NCBI GenBank assembly: GCA_002007465.1
Contig: LNAC01000741.1
Location: 101,417-165,416 of the forward strand
From: Ailurus styani
Lineage: Eukaryota; Chordata; Mammalia; Carnivora; Ailuridae
Direction of reading: 5' to 3'
DNA length: 64,000 nucleotides
The notes beneath the pieces were generated by a model. The model made no database searches. It saw only the letters and a program-made list of their open reading frames with translations, and was not told the DNA's origin. The stretch's first letter is position 1; each line of letters opens with the position of its first letter. Shown one piece after another: positions 4,321 through 64,000 of the stretch. The translations under genes were made by a program, and so were the position numbers.

Positions 4321-4475
4321 AGCCGTGTGCCCGCCCAGCCTCCCCGCATTTCCGGGCTTGCGTGGGTCTGCCCCTCGAAACCGAGACCTGTGGTGTAGCC
4401 CTTGGCCAGTCTTAGCGGGACGGTGCTAAGGAGAAGGTGCAACTGTCAGGTAGCTTGGAAGGTGACTCCCAGCCA

Positions 4476-5625
4476 CAGTCGGAAGGCAGACGGTCGCTTG
4501 GGGGCTGCAGGCCGCACAGTCGGAAGGCAGACTGTCTCTGGGAGGCTGCAGGCCGCACAGTCGGAAGGCAGACTGTCTCTGGGAGGCTGCAGGCCGCACA
4601 GTCGGAAGGCAGACTGTCTCTGGGAGGCTGCAGGTCGCACAGTCGGAAGGCAGACTGTCACTGGGGGCTGCAGGCCGCACAGTCGGAAGGCAGACTGTCA
4701 CTCGGGGGCTGCAGGTCACACAGTCAGAAGGCAGACTGTCACTCGGGGGCTTCAGGTCGCACAGTCAGAAGGCAGACTGTCGCTGGGAGGCTGCAGGCTG
4801 CACAGTCAGAAGGCAGACTGTCTCTGAGAGGCTGCAGGTCGCACAGTCGGAAGGCAGACTGTCACTCCGGGGGCTGCAGGCCACACAGTCGGAAGGCAGA
4901 CTGTCACTCCGGGGGCTGCAGGCCGCACAGTCGGAAGGCAGACTGTCTCTGGGAGGCTGCAGGTCGCACAGTCGGAAGGCAGACTGTCACTGGGGGGGCT
5001 GCAGGCCGCACAGTCGGAAGGCAGACTGTCACTCCGGGGGCTGCAGGCCACATAGTCGGAAGGCAGACTGTCTCTGGGAGGCTGCAGGTCGCACAGTCGG
5101 AAGGCAGACTGTCACTCCGGGGGCTGCAGGCCGCACAGTCAGAAGGCAGACTGTCTCTGGGAGGCTGCAGGCAGCACAGTCAGAAGGCAGACTGTCACTC
5201 CGGGGGCTGCAGGCTGCACAGTCAGAAGGCAGACTGTCTCTGAGAGGCTGCAGGTCGCACAGTCGGAAGGCAGACTGTCACTCCGGGGGCTGCAGGTCGC
5301 ACAGTCGGAAGGCAGACTGTCACTCCGGGGGCTGCAGGCCGCACAGTCGGAAGGCAGACTGTCACTCCGGGGGCTGCAGGCCACATAGTCGGAAGGCAGA
5401 CTGTCTCTGGGAGGCTGCAGGTCGCACAGTCGGAAGGCAGACTGTCACTCCGGGGGCTGCAGGCCGCACAGTCAGAAGGCAGACTGTCTCTGGGAGGCTG
5501 CAGGCAGCACAGTCAGAAGGCAGACTGTCACTCGGAGGCTGCAGGCCACACAGTCAGAAGGCAGACTGTCACTCGGAGGCTGCAGGCCACACAGTCGGAA
5601 GGCAGACTGTTGCTCGGGGGCTGCA
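4476..5625 (+). repeat. Minisatellite, 41-42 bp unit, about 28 copies
   Basis: Each unit carries CAGTCGGAAGGCAGACTGTC followed by either TCTGGGAGGCTGCAGG or ACTCCGGGGGCTGCAGG. Successive CAGTCGG starts at 4517 and 4558 are 41 bases apart; the CTCCGGGGG form is 42. Every unit has a PstI site (CTGCAG) and the inverted repeat ACAGTC-8 nt-GACTGT. A block at 5048-5200 recurs without change at 5381-5533, a 333-base (eight-unit) offset, so blocks of units were copied. Open frames of up to 268 codons across the array come from the stop-free units and are not genes. Confidence 0.97.
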
Positions 5626-5639
5626 GGCAGCAGCAGGCA

Positions 5640-21589: not shown

Positions 21590-22350
21590 CTGTTGGCGTG
21601 AACCTGGGCAGGGTCGACGGCGTGGGGCGAAGGAGCGCGGCACGTGGGTCCCGACCGACTCTGTGCGTGAGCCGTCGGCTGCCGTGGGGGACGTCGGGGC
21701 ACAGCCCAGAGGCGGCGGCCACAGGCCGGGGACACGCCGTGTCAGCCGGGGGGGCCGCCCGAACAGCGGGCTCCCTCGGCAGACGCGGCTCGTCACGGCC
21801 GCGAGCCCTTCGCAAAGGCCAAGGTGCAGCGTCCGCCGCGCTGCTCTCTGCGCGTCTTCTCCTGGATGCGCACACGGTCTTCCCTCTCCGAGGCCGCGTC
21901 CTCATCTTTCCTCGCATGGACCCTGGTCACGCTGGATGCGGACCCACCCGCGGGACCGCCTCCTAACGGAACCGTCTCTCTGAAGACCTGTCTCCCCGGA
22001 GTCTCATTCTGGGGAACCGAGGGTTAGGACACCAACGTAGGAATCCGGGGGACACCCCTCGGCCCATAAAAGCACCCCCGGACCCGGAGCCTCACTTCCG
22101 GCCGCGGCTGAGAAAGGACAGGGCGCTGGGGGTCAGGCTCCCAGGCACGGCCGCCGGCTGGAATGCAGCTGCGAGGGCTCCGGAGGCCAGAGCGTCGCCC
22201 AGGGCCGACCTTCCACGCCGAGCCGGGCTCCTCGTGCGACTGCGGCCATGCCGTGTCCTGGAAAGGGCGCACGCTGAACCCGGAGCTGGCAGGGCTGCTG
22301 CCGGGCTCTCCTCACGCCCCCTCCCCGGGCACAGCTTCCGCCGCCTCCTC
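21590..22350. other. CpG-rich block leading into the 32-bp array
   Basis: GGTCGACGGCGTGGGGCGAA and GGGGGACGTCGGGGC-type sequence borders the large minisatellite. The start codons of the long repeat frames lie here by chance. Confidence 0.45.
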
Positions 22351-22529
22351 CCGGCACCCTGTCCTGTCCACGCAGAGTGCGGGGCTGTGGCCTGTCCCCA
22401 CGGCGTTTCCAGCCCCTCCGGAAAACTCTCCCAGCTTCCTGGCTCATAGGCCTTTGCCCGCGCTGGTCTCTCCGCCTGGACTTCACTGCTCCTCCCCAGC
22501 CCCTGTGGGTGACGTTCTTGCTCCCCAGT

Positions 22530-24487
22530 CACTGTTCAATCCGGGAGGCCAGGTCCACACTCACTGCTCCGTCCGGGAGGCCGGGTCCGCACTCACTGCT
22601 CTGTCCAGGAGGCCAGGTCCACGGTCACCGCTCCGTCCGGGAGGCCGTGTCCACACTCACTGCTCCGTCCGGGAGGCCGGGTCCACACTCACTGCTCCGT
22701 CCGGGAGGCCGGGTCCTCACGCACTGTTCCGTCCAGGAGGCCGGGTCCACGGTCACCACTCCGTCCGGGAGGCCGGGTCCACACTCACTGCTCCGTCCGG
22801 GAGGCCGGGTCCACACTCACTGCTCCGTCCGGGAGGCCGGGTCCTCACTCACTGCTCCGTCCGGGAGGCCGGGTCCTCACTCACTGCTCCGTCCGGGAGG
22901 CCGGGTCCTCACGCACTGTTCCGTCCAGGAGGCCGGGTCCACGGTCACCACTCCGTCCGGGAGGCCGGGTCCACACTCACTGCTCCGTCCGGGAGGCCGG
23001 GTCCACACGCACTGTTCCGTCCAGGAGGCCGGGTCCACGGTCACCACTCCGTCCGGGAGGCCGGGTCCACACTCACTGCTCCGTCCGGGAGGCCGGGTCC
23101 ACACTCACTGCTCCGTCCGGGAGGCCGGGTCCGCACTCACTGCTCCGTCCGGGAGGCCGGGTCCGCACTCACTGCTCCGTCCGGGAGGCCAGGTCCACGG
23201 TCACCACTCCGTCCGGGAGGCTGGGTCCGCACTCACCGTTCCGTCTGGGAGGCCGGGTCCACGGTCACCGCTCNTCACGCACTGTTCCGTCCAGGAGGCC
23301 GGGTCCACGGTCACCACTCCGTCCGGGAGGCCGGGTCCACACTCACTGCTCCGTCCGGGAGGCCGGGTCCGCACTCACTACTCCGTCCGGGAGGCCAGGT
23401 CCACGGTCACCACTCTGTCCGGGAGGCTGGGTCCGCACTCACTGTTCCGTCCGGGAGGCCGGGTCCATGGTCACCGCTCCGTCCGGGAAGCCGGGTCCAC
23501 GGTCACCGCTCCGTCCGGGAGGCTGGGTCCGCACTCACCGTTCCGTCTGGGAGGCCGGGTCCACGGTCACCGCTCCGTCCGGGAGGCTGGGTCCGCACTC
23601 ACTCTTCCGTCTGGGAGGCCGGATCCACGGTCACTGTTCGGTCCCGGAGGCCGGGTCCACACTTGCTGCTCCATCTGGGAGGCTGGGTACGCACTCACTG
23701 TTCCGTCCGGGAGGCCGGGTCCAAGGTCACCACTCCGTCCGGGAGGCTGGGTCCGCACTCACCGTTCCGTCCGGGAGGCCGGGTCCACGGTCACCACTCT
23801 GTCCGGGAGGCTGGGTCCGCCCTCACTGTTCCGTCCGGGAGGCCGGGTCCACGGTCACCACTCCGTCCGGGAGGCTGGGTCCGCACTCACTGTTCCGTCC
23901 GGGAGGCCGGGTCCACGGTCACCACTCCGTCCGGGAGGCTGGGTCCGCACTCACTGTTCCGTCCGGGAGGCTGGGTCTGCACTCACCGTTCCGTCCGGGA
24001 GGCCGGGTCCACGGTCACCACTCCATCCGGGAGGCTGGGTCCGCACTCACCGTTCCGTCCGGGAGGCCGGGTCCACGGTCACCACTCCGTCCGGGAGGCT
24101 GGGTCCGCACTCACTGCTCCGTCCGGGAGGCCGGGTCCACACTCACTGCTCCGTCCGGGAGGCCGGGTCCGCACTCACTGCTCCGTCCGGGAGGCCGGGT
24201 CCGCACTCACTACTCCGTCCGGGAGGCCAGGTCCACGGTCACCACTCTGTCCGGGAGGCTGGGTCCGCACTCACTGTTCCGTCCGGGAGGCCGGGTCCAT
24301 GGTCACCGCTCCGTCCGGGAAGCCGGGTCCACGGTCACCACTCCATCCGGGAGGCTGGGTCCGCACTCACCGCTCCGTCCGGGAGGCCGGGTCCACGGTC
24401 ACCACTCCGTCCGGGAGGCTGGGTCCGCACTCACTGTTCCATCCGGGAGGCCGGGTCCACGGTCACCACTCCGTCCGGGAGGCTAGG
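22530..24487 (+). repeat. Large minisatellite, 32 bp unit, about 61 copies
   Basis: The unit is CTCCGTCCGGGAGGCCGGGT plus CCACACTCACTG; successive starts at 22631 and 22663 are 32 apart. The left half is mostly GCCGGGTCC(A/G)CACTCACTG units. The right half, from about 23400, is dominated by a 64-bp dimer pairing a CCACGGTCACCA unit with a GGCTGGGTCCGCACTCAC unit. A marker variant GCACTGTTCCGTCCAGGAGG recurs at 22721, 22913 and 23009 (192 and 96 bases apart). Because 32 is not a multiple of 3 and no unit contains a stop, long frames of 711 and 815 codons run through it; these are artefacts. Confidence 0.98.
23274..23274. other. Hidden gap inside the 32-bp array
   Basis: A single N joins CACCGCTC to TCACGCACTG. 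The unit predicts 19 bases at this point, so the repeat phase jumps by 18. Confidence 0.9.
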
Positions 24488-24489
24488 TC

Positions 24490-25075
24490 TACCCGGCCGG
24501 GCCGCAGCGTGAGGTGGGGCAGGACTGTGGCCACAGTGAACAGCCCGCTGCCCGTCTGCCCTCTTGGACAGGGTTCCCGGAGCCCCTGCCAGGCTCCCGG
24601 CCGTTCCTGAAGGGGCTGCTCGCCTCCCCACCTCACTCGTATCTGGGGCGGGTCCCAGATGGGTCCCTGCACCCAGACAGTCACCGGCGCCTTTCCCACA
24701 GCAGGGCAGCGCCCTGTGACCAGGCCCGGGGAGGAGACGCCCCCACCGTGGCTCCCGCTCTGCTCACTCTCCCCTCCTCCTGAGCCAGAGATTCCGTTCC
24801 TATCGTCCGGACTGGGGAGGACTTGACTTGAAAAGGAACTGGGCCCCCGAAAAGCCGCAGCGTCGCCGTGGCCAGACGGGGAATGTATTTCCCGCCAGGA
24901 GGCCGAGGCGAGGGGACGAGCAGGTGTCAGCCGGAGCCAGGCCGCCCTGCAGGGACAGACGCTGACCAGTTGCTGCCCCGGCTGGGGACACGCACGTTCT
25001 AATCATGAAAACTGTGAAGGCCTTCAACGCCGACGTACATTACCTTCCAAATTCACTTCTCGTCCTTGTCCATTT
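24490..25075. other. Single-copy sequence after the 32-bp array
   Basis: No recognisable feature. Confidence 0.45.
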
Positions 25076-31185: not shown

Positions 31186-31393
31186 GGTGTCTTTATGGAA
31201 TCACTGACTCCACCTCCTCCTTCTCCCCTCTGGGCGTACGTGTCCTGTCCCCGACACTCGGGCCCTGGGTATGATATTTTGAGAAGACTGACGACTCACT
31301 CCAAAGTTGTTTTCAGGTGTTTGTTCCCCTGCTCAGACCGTTCCTTCCCAAAACATTGGGGGAGTAGAGTTTAAAACTCTTATTTCAGTATTT

Positions 31394-31590
31394 TATTTTA
31401 TTTTAAGATTTTATTTATTTATTTGACGGAGAGAGACTGCAGGAGAGGGAACACAAGCAGGGGGAGTGGGAGAGGGAGAAGCAGGCTTCCCGCTGAGCAG
31501 GGAGCCCGATGCAGGACTTGATCCCAGGACCCCGGGATCATGACCTGAGCCGAAGGCAGATGCTTAACGACTGAGCCACCCGGGCACCCC
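31394..31590 (-). mobile_element. Carnivore SINE, antisense
   Basis: A TTTATTTATTTG tail complement at the left, GAGCCACCCGGGCACCCC at the right, with the body in between. Flanking TTCAGTATTTTA and TTCCAGTATTTTA are the likely duplication. Confidence 0.92.
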
Positions 31591-31680
31591 TTGTTCCAGT
31601 ATTTTAAACATTTTTCTTTATGTTTATCTTATTATACATCTTGGTAACTGCCTTTCTTTCCTTTGAAAATAATCATTGGT

Positions 31681-31905
31681 GGGGAGCCTGGGTGGCTCAG
31701 TTGGTTAAGTGTCCAGCTCTTGATTTCGGCTCAGGTCATGATCTCCAGGTCGTGAGATCCAGCCCCGCGTCAGGCTCTGTGCTCAGTGTGGAGTCTGCTT
31801 GAGACTCTCTCCCTCTCCCTCTGCCTCTCTCCCCACTCACGCACTCTCCCTCTCAATTACATGAATAAAAGTGTTTAAAAAATTAAAAAATAAAAAAGGA
31901 AAGAA
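31681..31905 (+). mobile_element. Carnivore SINE
   Basis: GGGGAGCCTGGGTGGCTCAG leader, CAGCTCTTGATTTCGGCTCA variant, CT-rich stretch and a long A-rich tail with GAAAG repeats. Flanks AATAATCATTGG and AACAATCATGGG are a diverged duplication. Confidence 0.92.
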
Positions 31906-31970
31906 AAGAAAACAATCATGGGCAACCCTATAAATCAGTTCTAGTTTGCTCATTCGAATACACATACACG

Positions 31971-32149
31971 GGGCGCCTGGGGGGCTCAGTCGTTAAGCAT
32001 CTCCCTTCGGGTCAGGTCATGATCCCGGGGTCCTGGGATCAAGTCCCTTGTCGGGCTCCCTGCTCAGAGTCTGCTTCTCCCTCGGCCTCTGCCTGTTGTT
32101 CCCCTGCTTGTGCACTCTCTTTGTCAAATAAATAAATAAAATATGTTTA
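31971..32149 (+). mobile_element. Carnivore SINE
   Basis: GGGGCGCCTGGGGGGCTCAG leader, CAAATAAATAAATAAAAT tail. It is flanked by AATACACAT on both sides. It is the third SINE in less than 800 bases. Confidence 0.92.
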
Positions 32150-32159
32150 AAAATACACA

Positions 32160-43510: not shown

Positions 43511-43794
43511 CATCAGTTTCTCAGTGATGGTTTGGACACTCAGTGGTGGAGTGTGTGTTGAGAGTCGCCCTTGGTGCTAAGATAGGCAACTAAAATGGTT
43601 GCGTCAAGACGCCCCCCGTGAGCAACAGATGGCAGGGAACAGCAGGGAGCACATCTTACCCAGGGGGCTCCCCCTGAGGCTTCGGGGATCCAAAGGAAAT
43701 GGGAGAGCAAGAGTAGACTAGACGAGAAGCTGACACCCCTTGGCATACTCCGGGGAGCCACTGGCCCCATAGCCAGCTTTAGTAACAGCTAACA

Positions 43795-44250
43795 ATTCTG
43801 GAAAGCTGACGTCATGCCATGCCCTGTTCCAAGCATTTTACATGTGTGAACTCATTAAACCCCTCCAATGACCACGTATCACAGGTGCTACCATCATCAT
43901 CCCCATTTTACAGATAGAAACCGGGGCACGGTGCTCACTTGGGCAGCGTATATACTAAAAGGCGCGTCTGGGTGGCTCAGTGGGTTAAGTGTCTGCCTTC
44001 GATTTGGGTCATGATCCCAGGATCCTGGGTTTGAGCTCTGTGTCGATTCTCCCTCTGCCTCCCCCCTCCACTGCTCGTGCTCTCTCTCTCTTGCTCACTC
44101 TCTCTCTCCAATAAATAAATAAAATCCTAATAAAATAAGAAACGGAGGCACAAAAAAGTTAGGTACCTCGTCCAGGGCCACAGAACTAGTAAATGCAGAG
44201 GCCGGATTTGAACCCGGTGCTCTGACTCTCAGCCTGAGCTCTGCGCTCTC
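43795..44250 (+). repeat. MIR split by the chimeric SINE
   Basis: The left part (to 43929) has AAGCATTTTACATGTGTGAA and CCCCATTTTACAGATAGAAA. The right part resumes after 44151 with CACAGAACTAGTAAATGCAG and GGATTTGAACCCGGTGCTC. Together they make one MIR of the usual layout. Confidence 0.85.
43930..44137 (+). mobile_element. U6 snRNA / carnivore SINE chimeric retrocopy
   Basis: Bases 43931-43960 match the first 30 nt of U6 snRNA (about 26 identical, including the block TATACTAAAA). They are followed without a gap by a carnivore SINE leader (GGCGCGTCTGGGTGGCTCAG), SINE body, CT-rich stretch and AATAAATAAATAAAATCC tail. The whole is flanked by one 14-bp duplication: AGAAACCGGGGCAC at 43916-43929 and AGAAACGGAGGCAC at 44138-44151 (12 of 14 identical). 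This shows the two parts inserted together. The target was an older MIR, which continues on both sides. LINE-1 template switching producing U6 5' chimeras is known in other mammals. Confidence 0.88.
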
Positions 44251-45802: not shown

Positions 45803-46450
45803 CTTGGCTGCCCCCTTCCCTTGCTCCCGGGCCGGTGCAACAGTCCTTCCTCACTGTCTGCCCCCAGATGCTCCCGGGCTGGTGCAACAGTCCTTCCTCA
45901 CTGTCTGCCCCCTTCCCTTGCTCCCAGGCCCGGTGCATCAGTCGTTCCTCACTGTCTGCCCCCTTCCCTTGCTCCCGGGCCCGGTGCATCAGTCCTTCCT
46001 CACTGTCTCCCCCAGATGCTCCCGGGACCGGTGCATCAATCGTTCCTCACTGTCTGCCCCCAGATGCTCCCGGGACCGGTGCATCAGTCCTTCCTCACTG
46101 TCTGCCCCCAGATGCTCCCAGGACCGGTGCATCAGTCCTTCCTCACTGTCTGCCCCCTTCCCTTGCTCCCCGGGCCGGTGCAACAGTCCTTCCTCACTGT
46201 CTGCCCCCAGATGCTCCCGGGCCGGTGCATCAGTCGTTCCTCACTGTCTGCCCCCAGATGCTCCCGGGACCGGTGCATCAGTCCTTCCTCACTGTCTGCC
46301 CCCTTCCCTTGCTCCCAGGCTGGTGCATCAGTCCTTCCTCACTGTCTGCCCCCAGATGCTCCCGGGCCTGGTGCAACAGTCCTTCCTCACTGTCTGCCCC
46401 CAGATGCTCCCGGGCCGGTGCATCAGTCCTTCCTCACTGTCTGCCCCCAG
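45803..46450 (+). repeat. Minisatellite, 47-51 bp units, about 13 copies
   Basis: GTGCATCAGTCCTTCCTCAC plus TGTCTGCCCCC starts at 45835, 45882, 45933, 45984, 46031, 46079, 46127, 46178, 46225, 46273, 46323, 46371 and 46418. Two unit types are mixed: a 47-48 bp form with CAGATGCTCCCGGG and a 50-51 bp form with TTCCCTTGCTCCCGGG. The copies are nearly identical. The open frames of 253-276 codons across it are by-products. Confidence 0.97.
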
Positions 46451-46589
46451 ATCCCCCCCGACCCGGCCCCACGAGCCTGGCCGCCCGCCTTAGCGCTCAG
46501 CAGGACCACCCGCCGAAGCTCCCTGCTGGTCCTTGCTTCCACAGCCGGCCGTCTCCACAGACAGCCTCTGCGGGTGACTCAGCTCCCCC

Positions 46590-60014: not shown

Positions 60015-62125
60015 GTAACGTCGGGGTCAAAGCCCTGTGGCGCGTCTGTGGAAATGCGGGCACGGGACAGTCTTGAATTATCTGTGCTTTCACGCTGGGG
60101 GAAGGATGACACATTTGAGCTGTCGCCAGAGTTGGTTTTTGACAGAAAGGAAATTTCTCTTCCTGCCAGCCATCTGTGCCTGAGATCGCCCCTCTCCCTA
60201 GCCTGGCTCTCTCATCCCCTCTCCCAAAGCCGCGCCACTCACCAGAAGGCACTCCTGGGGGATGGAGTGCTCTAACCCTCGTGGAGAGAGGGCTGAGTGT
60301 TCAGGAGGGATCCCAGCCGCACAGAGTTGTGTCTGAAGGCCCGGCCAGCGAGTCACACAGAGGGTGGGCAGGGTCCTTAGGACTCCAAAACACCTGGCTC
60401 TGGCTCGGTGTAAATACTTTTAGGTGCCCCACTAGGGGCTCAAGTCATTCTTACTGCAGCTCGCTCCATTTAAAGAATATCCAAACTATGCCCTTTGCAA
60501 AAAGATGTACGGGGGCCCCTTGCGGCCGATGCTGCCCTGACACCCGAGTGTGGTTTCCCTCGTCAGATCCTCGGCCCTACTGTACACAGTGAGGATCAGA
60601 GATACAGTCCAGTACTGTCCGTGCAGGTGCCCAGCAAAGCGGGGCCAGAGCCCGGCAAGGGCCCGCATAAAGGGATCTGATGCCAGAGGATGGCAAATGG
60701 ATGGAACTTTAATGGATGGAAAGAGTGGGGTCTTCTGGGCCATTCCAGAAAATCCATAGGGGTAAAGGTCAAATGTGTAGAAACAGGTAGGACCCAGGGA
60801 AACAAACTGGTGCTAAGTCTTGAGCCTGCTGGCTGGGGATAGGGTGGAGGTCCTCCGGCTCAGGGTAATGGAGAGACCTCTGACAGCAGAGAGGAACCCA
60901 GGGCGGAGAACCCTCTCTTCAGGCTTTACTCACTAGAGATGGGGGGCCGGCGGGGAGGCGGGGCCGGCGGGGAGGCGCGGTCACCTGGTTGTAACGGGGT
61001 CGCGGGACTGCTCTAGCCTTCGGAGGGCGGAGGGCGGCAGGGACCCTGCTGACTGGGAGGGCGGGGCCGGGCCTTGAGAGCCGGCAAGGACGGCAGCGCC
61101 ATGGTCTCAGGAATGAGCCTGGGAAGTGCCTATAAGTCAAGTATTGACTCCAAATTTCTTAGAAGGAAGTAGGATTGACAAATACCAAAACGTAAGCCAG
61201 TGGGAAAATAAGATTTACAGAAAGAAGATTTAAGGTTTATGAAATAAGACTTCATGTACATATAAAATTTTAAAGGACACACGACTTGAGTAGAGTAGGG
61301 CATCCAAATAAACATTTCCATCGCAATTGGGGCAAAGTCCTGTGGGCCTAGATGAGGCCCGAGTGATCCTGAGATCCACACACTTCCCGGACAGGAGGCG
61401 ATTTTCAGGCAGCTGGGCTGGGGGTTCCTAAGGCATGGCTGCTGCTTGCGGTGGACCTGAGCCCAGGAAAGGGAGGGCGTCCGTCTCTGTAGCTTTCCCG
61501 GGATTGGCCAGCTCTGCGGAGGGCTGGGAGGGCCAGGCTGGGGAAGGGGACGAAGCTGGTCACAGGATGTCCAGCTCTGTCCCCGTGAGGTTCCTGAGCA
61601 AAAGGCCAGGCCACCTGCAGGCCCCCAACCCTCTTGCTGTCGGGTTCACCCTTGTCAAAGTAAAGTGTCCTAAATGTTAAAATATGACTTTTATATAAAG
61701 TAGAGATCGATTTTATTCAGTTTGTCAGTTCGCGAGGAAACCTACAGTATGGTAAAAAAAAAACACGCAAAGAACATTCAAAGAGCTGGTTATTTGTAGG
61801 CAACTGACAAAACAAATGCTAGAATTAAGTTGTTAAATCAGACACCAAAGGATTAATGTTTTACAGGATAATAAAAGTATCAGTAGGTTATCATGTTTGG
61901 TGGGTGGAAATCACTTGCATCTTCATGAGGCAAAAACCCACAGGTCACTCTGTGTCTTCACAGCCCTGGATACACAGTACACAGGGGTCCTTTCTCCAGG
62001 AAAACCAAGGGCCCCTTAAAGGCAGGCTGACAACGCCGTGCCTTCCACTGACGTTGAAAGCCACGCAGTCCCCTCTTGGCCTTTTTCACAGGTCGTGGGC
62101 AATCTCTCTTAACTCGTTCTTCCAG
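60015..62125 (+). other. RCSD1 intron 5
   Basis: It has a small GC-rich stretch at 60940-61090 with a duplicated GGGGAGGCGGGGCCGGC-like unit, then AT-rich single-copy sequence. No other exon was recognised. Confidence 0.7.
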
Positions 62126-62809
62126 GTGCGGACCAAGGGCTCGATAAAAAGGCGCCCCCCCTCCCGGCGGTTCCGAAGGTCTCAGTCGGACTGTGGGGAC
62201 CTGGCCGACTTCAGGGCCCCCGAGTCGTCCCAGGAGAATGGGGCCAAGGAAGAGCCTGGGGATGAGGTGTTCCCATCCAAGAGCAAGGCCCGGGGGTCTC
62301 CTCCACGCAGCGAGGGGCCGGTGGGCGCGGAAGTGTGGAGGCAGCGGGGGTCCCCGCAGAAGCCGCCTCTGAGGAGGACGTCCAGCAGATCGGAGAAGGG
62401 CGGAGACGCGGGGGAAGCCCAGTGTCCCCAGACGGCTGCGGGGGGCCCTGAAGAGGGGGCTGGCCCGCGTCCCACCGCAGGGGAGGCGCTCCAACAAGCC
62501 CAAGCCTCCAGCCCCGAGGCCACGAATGCATGCAGCAGCCCCACGGAAGCAGCAGCAGCTGGAGAAGAGGCAGAGGAGTCTGAGGAGGTGAAGGAGGAGA
62601 GGGCGGGAAATGAAGAGGAGGAGCCCAGACGAAGGAGCCAAGACGCAGAGGGGCCGGCGGACGGAGCTGGGGGGGAGGCCCCGCCAAGCCCCCCCGAAGG
62701 GGTGGAGGGCCCCCACTTCCCGGAGCAGGGGAAAGGCCAGGAAAAGGATGAGGAAGGGGCCCTTCTGGAGCCAGGCAGCAAGCCCATCGAGGAGGCCCCC
62801 AACACAGAG
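62126..62809 (+). CDS. RCSD1: RCSD1 (CapZIP) coding exon 6, large acidic C-terminal exon
   Basis: Two hundred and twenty-eight codons between the acceptor CGTTCTTCCAG and the donor GTAAGT at 62810, phase 0. It begins [20 protein letters not shown], a strongly basic segment (residues 159-178) that I take to hold the C-terminal half of the CPI motif. The serine two residues after RRFRRS is residue 179, the MAPKAP-K2 site reported for human CapZIP. Downstream the sequence becomes low-complexity and rich in Glu, Pro, Ser and Ala, with acidic runs such as [12 protein letters not shown]; it is likely disordered. It diverges from human and is about nine codons shorter than I remember. The reading frame stays open past the donor to a stop at 63239-63241. 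The final exon (about 20 residues in human, ending DTKM) is not in the window. Confidence 0.95.
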
Positions 62810-64000
62810 GTAAGTGGCCTGCACCTTCTCCTAAGGAGGCCAGGGCCACAGTGTGTCTGCTTATGCTTCCTCGCAAATGGGCTCCAGTGCGCAGGCAAAA
62901 GGGCGCAGATTGAAACGGGCTATCGTGGACAGGGAGGGGACAGACATACAAGAAAGGGAAGCACGTGCTGTGCCCCGTCCGCCCTCCTGCCCACGCGGGG
63001 TTCCGGCGCGTCCGGAGCATGTGTGGAGACCCAGCACAGCTCGGTGGCTGAGGCCGCGCGCAGCTTCCGCAGGCCCGGGAGGCAGGGCTCTGGGCTCGGC
63101 CCATGGCTGGGGGTGCTCCGAGAGGAAGGGGGTGCACCTTTCCCTCAACTCGGGCTAGCATGGGAGACCGGCAGCTCCGGAGGGCGCAGGAAGGTAGTGG
63201 CCCGGGGCAGGGTGTTCTTGGGGGAAGCCAAGAAGGGTTGATGTGTTCGGAGAGGGGCTCACCAGGGACCCTCACATTATTCCCACTCCACCTAGACGAG
63301 GGAGAAGAAAGTGTGAGTCCCAAAGACTCCTGAGACATGGCTGGGAGTCCTCTGGCCGGGCAAAGAGGTTCCACATTTCTTCACCACCATCCATTCTAAA
63401 GGCGTGCTCCGATCCCGTCAGCCCGGAGATCTCTGCCAGGTGTCCGGATGGCAAACACGTGATCTGAGGCATGGGATTCTCCTTCTTTTGAGGAGGAAGC
63501 CCCCAAGTCCACGTAGTCCCCTCCCTGTGGCTGTCACACCTTAGTTTCAGGCTCGGAGCGGCCTGTCCAAGCAGGAGAACTTCCCATCTCCCTGGCGGCA
63601 CCTTCTGGCCCCGAGGCATTAAGCAATCGCCTGGTTGAAAAGCTTGGGGATGGTCTCATGTAGACGAGGTCTCCTGCAGAAACTGCAGGAGCTTCGGAAC
63701 AGGCTCCCTCTTGGGCCACCTCTACATTCCCACTGTGCCCAAGCCCCGGCGGGGACGCAAGACGCCTGCACCCTCGCAAGAGCTCTTCTTCCAAACCGGT
63801 TCCCCGGGGAGGCAAAGAGTAGCTCCACGCACCCCTCCCCATGCTTTCCCTCTCCTGCTCTGCCGCAGGCACACAAAATTTTGACTCCCTTAGCCCAAAC
63901 CCCCGGTTTTAGAGAGGAAGGCACTGAGGTTCCAAAAGGGGCATGAACTGTCCAAGGTCACAGAGCTCCAGGTTGACGTGACGGACGCCGGCTCCACCAG
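62810..64000 (+). other. Start of RCSD1 intron 6
   Basis: The donor GTAAGT opens an intron that runs off the window. I found nothing resembling the conserved C-terminal exon. Confidence 0.75.
63900..64000 (+). repeat. MIR fragment at the window end
   Basis: GAGAGGAAGGCACTGAGGTT and TGTCCAAGGTCACAGAGCTC match the MIR core. It is cut by the window edge. Confidence 0.75.

What the first reader, a model, noticed from the sequence alone, without database searches (positions are those of the whole stretch)
43930..44137. U6 snRNA 5' end fused to a carnivore SINE in one insertion
Thirty bases that match the U6 snRNA start with about four differences run straight into a tRNA-derived SINE. One 14-bp duplication (12/14 identical) encloses both, and an older MIR encloses that. 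So this was a single target-primed event, best explained by the LINE-1 enzyme jumping from SINE RNA to U6 RNA. U6-L1 and U6-SINE chimeras are described in primates and rodents; I do not know of a described carnivore SINE example. If other carnivore genomes carry more, this is a chimera family.
Basis: partly seen in the sequence, partly recalled or inferred. Interest (0 to 1): 0.75.

Follow-up and report, generated by a model that had tools for sequence, protein, structure and literature searches.

The report
Short U6 RNA fragment fused to SINE
A carnivore-type jumping element landed inside an older one carrying the first 30 bases of the splicing RNA U6 on its front end, most likely because the copying enzyme jumped from one RNA to the other; this kind of accident is known, but the short U6 piece is unusual.

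Summary
Window 43931-43960 matches U6 snRNA nt 1-30 at 26 of 30 bases; the next best place scores 19, and 100 simulated windows peak at 17-21. It runs flush into base 1 of a Can-type tRNA SINE (43961-44137). A 14-bp duplication (12/14) brackets both, and both copies are the same stretch of an interrupted MIR. In the seven other SINEs found here the duplication abuts the SINE (0-2 nt); here it ends 31 nt upstream, at the U6 5' end. One target-primed insertion with a template switch from SINE RNA to U6 RNA is the best reading; a SINE landing later beside a tailless U6 pseudogene remains possible.

The class is known: U6/Alu, U6/Mon-1, U6/AnolisSINE2. What departs is the U6 piece: U6 in U6/L1 chimeras is typically full length and sense, and internal starts after a switch were reported as never observed there, though they are for U5. 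No carnivore genome could be searched, so recurrence and the orthologous empty site are untested. A self-copying family is unlikely: pol III should start at the SINE and leave U6 behind.

The parts
43783..43915 (-). left part of an interrupted MIR (aligned as its reverse complement)
   Evidence: local alignment to a recalled MIR consensus from 43783 through the 5' TSD copy, score 118.5; joined empty site 193.5 against a maximum of 29 in 100 shuffles
43916..43929 (+). 5' target-site duplication AGAAACCGGGGCAC (MIR sequence)
   Evidence: 12/14 to the 3' copy; same MIR consensus positions as the 3' copy
43930..43930 (+). single G between TSD and U6: base 15 of the TSD (A in the 3' copy and in MIR) or an untemplated base
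   Evidence: read directly; MIR letter
43931..43960 (+). U6 snRNA nt 1-30, 3'-truncated, sense to the SINE
   Evidence: 26/30 ungapped, next best 19, simulated maxima 17-21; first 30 U6 letters agree with a printed U6 sequence
43961..44137 (+). Can/SINEC-type tRNA-derived SINE from its base 1 through its A-rich tail, with an internal deletion
   Evidence: BLAST to a recalled Can-SINE probe, 72.1% over 190 columns; aligned with the seven other copies found in the window, 46 of 171 compared bases differ from their consensus; A-box-like TGGCTCAGTGGG at 43973, my B-box pattern gave no match
44138..44151 (+). 3' target-site duplication AGAAACGGAGGCAC (MIR sequence)
44152..44242 (-). right part of the interrupted MIR
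   Evidence: alignment to the recalled MIR consensus, score 93 for 44139-44242

Best explanation
One LINE-1-driven insertion made this locus. Inferred steps: ORF2p nicked the MIR at the start of AGAAAC..., primed on the A-tail of a Can-SINE transcript, copied the SINE to its first base, then jumped to a U6 RNA at nt 30 (end of its AAAA run; either inside an intact U6 or at the 3' end of a U6 fragment) and copied to U6 base 1. Second-strand cleavage about 14 bp away gave the duplication. Shown: the order, orientation, exact ends and shared duplication. Inferred: the enzyme, the switch, and whether U6 was intact. The product is most likely an inert fossil; a further SINE transcript would start near SINE base 1 and drop the U6 piece.
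For: One TSD brackets U6 plus SINE and both copies are the same MIR stretch; the MIR aligns across the joined empty site. In 7 of 7 other SINEs found in the window the TSD ends 0-2 nt before the SINE; here it ends 31 nt before the SINE and 1 nt before U6 base 1. Both RNAs are copied to their 5' first bases and joined flush, with no extra A at the junction. Same orientation, as template switching predicts (models). U6 and SINE divergences are compatible, 4/30 against 21/90, Fisher p 0.31, a weak test.
Against: In U6/L1 chimeras U6 is typically full length, and internal starts after a switch were reported as never observed for them. Tailless U6 pseudogenes are the main U6 class in dog, cat and ferret, so a tailless U6 hit later by a SINE has good prior support. 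No orthologous empty site was seen; the MIR consensus used in its place is recalled. The endonuclease site is poor: bottom strand TTTCT/AT rather than TTTT/AA (read). The 12/14 repeat by itself is reached by about 2% of random placements.
Confidence: 0.74

Rival explanations
1. Two events: a tailless 3'-truncated U6 pseudogene, primed at its AAAA run, first inserted in the MIR with the 14-bp TSD; later a Can-SINE inserted exactly at the U6/TSD junction with a TSD of about 4-8 bp or none.
For: Tailless U6 is the dominant class in three of four carnivores tabulated: 316 of 415 in dog, 236 of 279 in cat, 440 of 504 in ferret, but 1 of 24 in panda. Such copies break in single-stranded purine-rich segments, for most snRNAs just after a thymine, as CT|AAAA would be, and internal A-rich priming is the favoured cause. 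A weak abutting repeat TACTAAAA/TAATAAAA (7/8) exists.
Against: The weak repeat lies inside the SINE's own tail and 16.9% of 5,000 random placements score as well. None of the 7 other SINEs found here has so short a TSD; their best repeats span 12 or more bases. A normal second TSD would repeat U6 or MIR bases left of the SINE; none is seen. No extra A remains at the junction.
Confidence: 0.16
2. RNA ligation before retrotransposition: a U6 5' fragment was ligated to a SINE RNA and the fused RNA was retrotransposed.
For: RNA ligation is one of the two routes proposed for sense U6/L1 chimeras.
Against: The SINE is joined at its transcription start, which would carry a triphosphate, and U6 at nt 30, not at its mature 3' end; RtcB needs a 5'-OH and a 2',3'-cyclic phosphate (recalled, not tested).
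Confidence: 0.07
3. The 30 bases are not U6 but a chance likeness or another sequence.
For: Rfam reports no U6 hit.
Against: 26/30, anchored at U6 base 1 and 1 nt from the TSD; about 3e-7 expected per window.
Confidence: 0.03

Closest known systems
U6/L1 chimeric retrogenes (Doucet 2015 PMC4476161; Law and Burns 2026 PMC13174262)
   Same: U6 at the 5' end, sense, flanked by a TSD, single insertion, template switch or ligation proposed
   Different: partner is a SINE copied to its first base, not a mostly 5'-truncated L1; U6 is only nt 1-30, whereas U6 there is typically full length. One 3'-truncated U6/L1 is described, but inverted and ascribed to twin priming
U5/L1 and U3/L1 chimeras with 3'-truncated RNA in sense
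   Same: truncated RNA joined in sense, read as internal initiation during template switching (three sense U5 chimeras, truncated at nt 83, 78 and 98) or as prior cleavage (U3)
   Different: other RNAs; partners are L1 or, for one U5, a sequence of unknown origin. So internal landing after a switch is known in principle, only not for U6/L1
U6/Alu and U6atac/Alu, U6/Mon-1 (platypus), U6/AnolisSINE2, mouse B2-U6-L1
   Same: U6-family RNA joined to a SINE, mostly with a TSD reported
   Different: other hosts and SINE families; Mon-1 and AnolisSINE2 are thought to use L2; in mouse U6 lies between B2 and L1; only one of two U6atac/Alu had a TSD; lengths of the U6 pieces in the Alu cases were not seen
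tailless (3'-truncated) U6 retropseudogenes
   Same: U6 kept to base 1 and cut at an internal purine run
   Different: there the truncated U6 is followed by its TSD; here a SINE lies between
WEIRD-MgSINE chimera of Magnaporthe (PMC2104539)
   Same: non-coding RNA joined to a SINE inside one 12-bp repeat
   Different: fungal RNA and SINE; the SINE there is 5'-truncated

Membership tests
snRNA-retrotransposon chimera (Group IV of Doucet 2015) | snRNA joined to a non-LTR element inside one TSD | tested here: met
   12/14 TSD around both, same MIR positions; class as described
snRNA-retrotransposon chimera (Group IV of Doucet 2015) | both parts arrived together (orthologous empty site) | not testable with these tools
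   no carnivore genome reachable; the genome search unanswered eight times; a recalled MIR consensus stands in for the empty site
classical U6/L1-type template-switch chimera | full-length U6 segment | tested here: not met
   homology stops at U6 nt 30; trait ('consistently', 'typically')
classical U6/L1-type template-switch chimera | U6 in sense to the element | tested here: met
classical U6/L1-type template-switch chimera | L1 endonuclease site TT/AAAA | tested here: inconclusive
   AT/AGAAAC, a weak likeness
tailless U6 retropseudogene (Group III) | truncated U6 followed by its own TSD | tested here: not met
   177 bp of SINE lie between U6 and the 3' TSD
Can/SINEC SINE of Carnivora | tRNA-derived head, polypyrimidine tract, AATAAA repeats, terminator, A-tail | tested here: inconclusive
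   72.1% to a recalled probe; pyrimidine tract, AATAAA repeats and A-rich tail seen; A-box-like match but no match to my B-box pattern; traits from PMC9599045; not tested against a repeat library
self-propagating chimera family | several copies sharing one U6-SINE junction | not testable with these tools
   junction pattern 0 hits in viral contigs; a SINE motif 0 hits in viral contigs and genome contigs, so the first zero says nothing

The most novel reading that the evidence does not exclude
Carnivore LINE-1 enzyme, which makes so many tailless U6 pseudogenes, also starts inside U6 after a template jump, so that truncated-U6/Can-SINE chimeras broken at the U6 A27-A30 run recur across Carnivora and show that internal priming and template switching share one landing site.
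Probability: 0.25. Interest if true: 0.55.

Novelty: new variant of a known kind. Interest (0 to 1): 0.32.

Why it matters
U6 chimeras are used as a read-out of how LINE-1 picks its templates. A U6 piece cut at an internal A-run but joined to a complete SINE end would mean that such a site can serve after a template jump as well as at first priming, as already proposed for U5. Dog, cat and ferret, rich in tailless U6, are where this could be counted. As a single decayed locus it is a curiosity, with no likely function.

Tried and rejected
Rfam at gathering and E-value thresholds, including a 42-base stretch: no U6. Search of the window's own genome: eight identical requests, none answered. Pattern scans: U6-SINE junction in viral contigs, 0 hits; a Can-SINE motif that this SINE itself carries, 0 hits in viral contigs and genome contigs. 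As the motif alone is missing, the junction's absence says nothing. More U6 in the window: apart from offsets of this same copy, the best 30-mer is 21/30, within the range of the simulated maxima. tRNA genes: none by ARAGORN. Rejected: U6 inserting second, between TSD and SINE, since GGCAC/GGGGC offers no L1-type A/T target and I see no second TSD (reading; no separate scan made); twin priming, which gives opposite orientations. Free U6 folded alone pairs nt 27-30 with its own U-tail, so that prediction does not support a single-stranded landing site; LSm proteins bind that tail (mentioned).

Literature, what I saw. PMC4476161: outline, sections 3, 5, 6, 8, 9, 10, 11 and 15, passages. PMC13174262: outline, sections 10, 11, 12, 17, 18, passages. 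PMC2104539: passages. PMC9599045: abstract and passages. PMC5322556: passages and section 16. PMC12458276: term search, no occurrence. PMC10045129: one passage. All others: search listings only. No carnivore U6-SINE chimera appears in what I saw of searches (20 of 47 papers listed; 5 of 5; 15 of 63; 0; 15 of 43; 12 of 20; 10 of 10).

Full report
What is there. Left to right on the + strand: a MIR in reverse orientation (from 43783), the 14-mer AGAAACCGGGGCAC (43916-43929), one G, thirty bases of U6 (43931-43960), a Can-type SINE from its base 1 to its A-rich tail (43961-44137), the 14-mer AGAAACGGAGGCAC (44138-44151), and the rest of the MIR (to 44242).

Is it U6? The 30 bases match U6 nt 1-30 at 26 positions without a gap, and the match ends at nt 30. 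Over both strands of 64 kb the next best place has 19 matches; 100 simulated windows peaked at 17-21, and a binomial estimate gives about 3e-7 chance matches per window. Apart from offsets of this same copy, no U6 30-mer in the window does better than 21/30. Rfam did not report U6, which counts against, though a 30-base piece may be too short for that model.

Is it one insertion? The duplication alone is not overwhelming: 413 of 20,000 random placements in this window reach 12/14, probably helped by its long minisatellites. The MIR settles it. The left flank with its 14-mer and the right flank from 44139 each align to a recalled MIR consensus, and they overlap there by 13 positions, the duplicated bases; the joined empty site scores 193.5 against 118.5 for the filled site and a maximum of 29 in 100 shuffles. 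As an internal control, BLAST found seven other SINEs of this type in the window. In 7 of 7 the best duplication ends 0-2 nt before the SINE start. Here it ends 31 nt before the SINE and 1 nt before U6. The best repeat that would abut this SINE is 7/8 and sits in its own tail.

How it most likely arose. Shown: order U6-SINE, same orientation, both parts reaching their own 5' first base, flush junction, shared duplication. Inferred: LINE-1 ORF2p primed on the SINE tail, ran to the SINE end, jumped to U6 at nt 30 and ran to the U6 end. Whether U6 was intact or a fragment cannot be told. The main rival is a tailless U6 first and a SINE later with almost no duplication. It deserves weight because tailless U6 dominates in dog (316 of 415), cat (236 of 279) and ferret (440 of 504), though not in panda (1 of 24), and because a break at CT|AAAA looks like the purine runs used in that process.

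Age. The SINE is the most diverged of the eight from the consensus of the other seven (26.9%; that consensus mixes subfamilies and leaves this copy out, so the figure is inflated). U6 has 4/30 changes, the first 100 alignment columns of the SINE 21/90; the two do not differ significantly (p 0.31).

What is known. Chimeras of U6-type RNAs with SINEs are in print: U6/Alu (rare) and two U6atac/Alu, one with a TSD, platypus Mon-1 and six AnolisSINE2, two mouse B2-U6-L1. Carnivore U6 copies joined to retrotransposons were counted (26 dog, 17 cat, 11 ferret, 5 panda) without naming partners in the text I read; that survey's 97.5% identity limit would have excluded this 87% copy. U6 in U6/L1 chimeras is described as consistently or typically full length, and internal initiation during template switching as never observed for U6/L1. 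But the same paper reads three sense U5 chimeras that way and describes one inverted truncated U6/L1, and concludes that initiation can be internal in either pathway. So the broad class is met, the usual full-length trait of the U6/L1 type is not, and the departure is one of degree.

Family? The hope for a chimera family is weak: SINE promoters are internal and transcription should begin near SINE base 1 (established knowledge of tRNA SINEs), so U6 would be lost at the next round. Human U6/L1 chimeras likewise usually do not propagate further. Independent recurrence is possible but was not testable: the collections scanned gave no hit even for the SINE motif and the genome search did not complete.

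Verdict. A real, well-marked, probably single-event U6-SINE chimera; ordinary in kind, unusual in its truncated U6 piece.

Noticed in passing
window 61829-63238 (+): Open frame of 470 codons with a Pfam RCSD region match (E 1.7e-11; five of the 158 listed frames were tested), perhaps a coding exon.
   Followed up: no
window 22112-24607 (+): 832-codon open frame that is mostly a 32-bp minisatellite (60.9 copies, 22522-24483); its MG2 Pfam hit (32.4 bits, cut-off 32.8) is likely an artefact of the repeat.
   Followed up: partly
window 4474-5632 and 45822-46452: Long minisatellites with 41-bp (28 copies) and 48-bp (13 copies) units in a mostly GC-rich window.
   Followed up: no
window 31393-32153: Three Can-type SINEs within 761 bp, one inverted, each with its own duplication next to its start.
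   Followed up: partly
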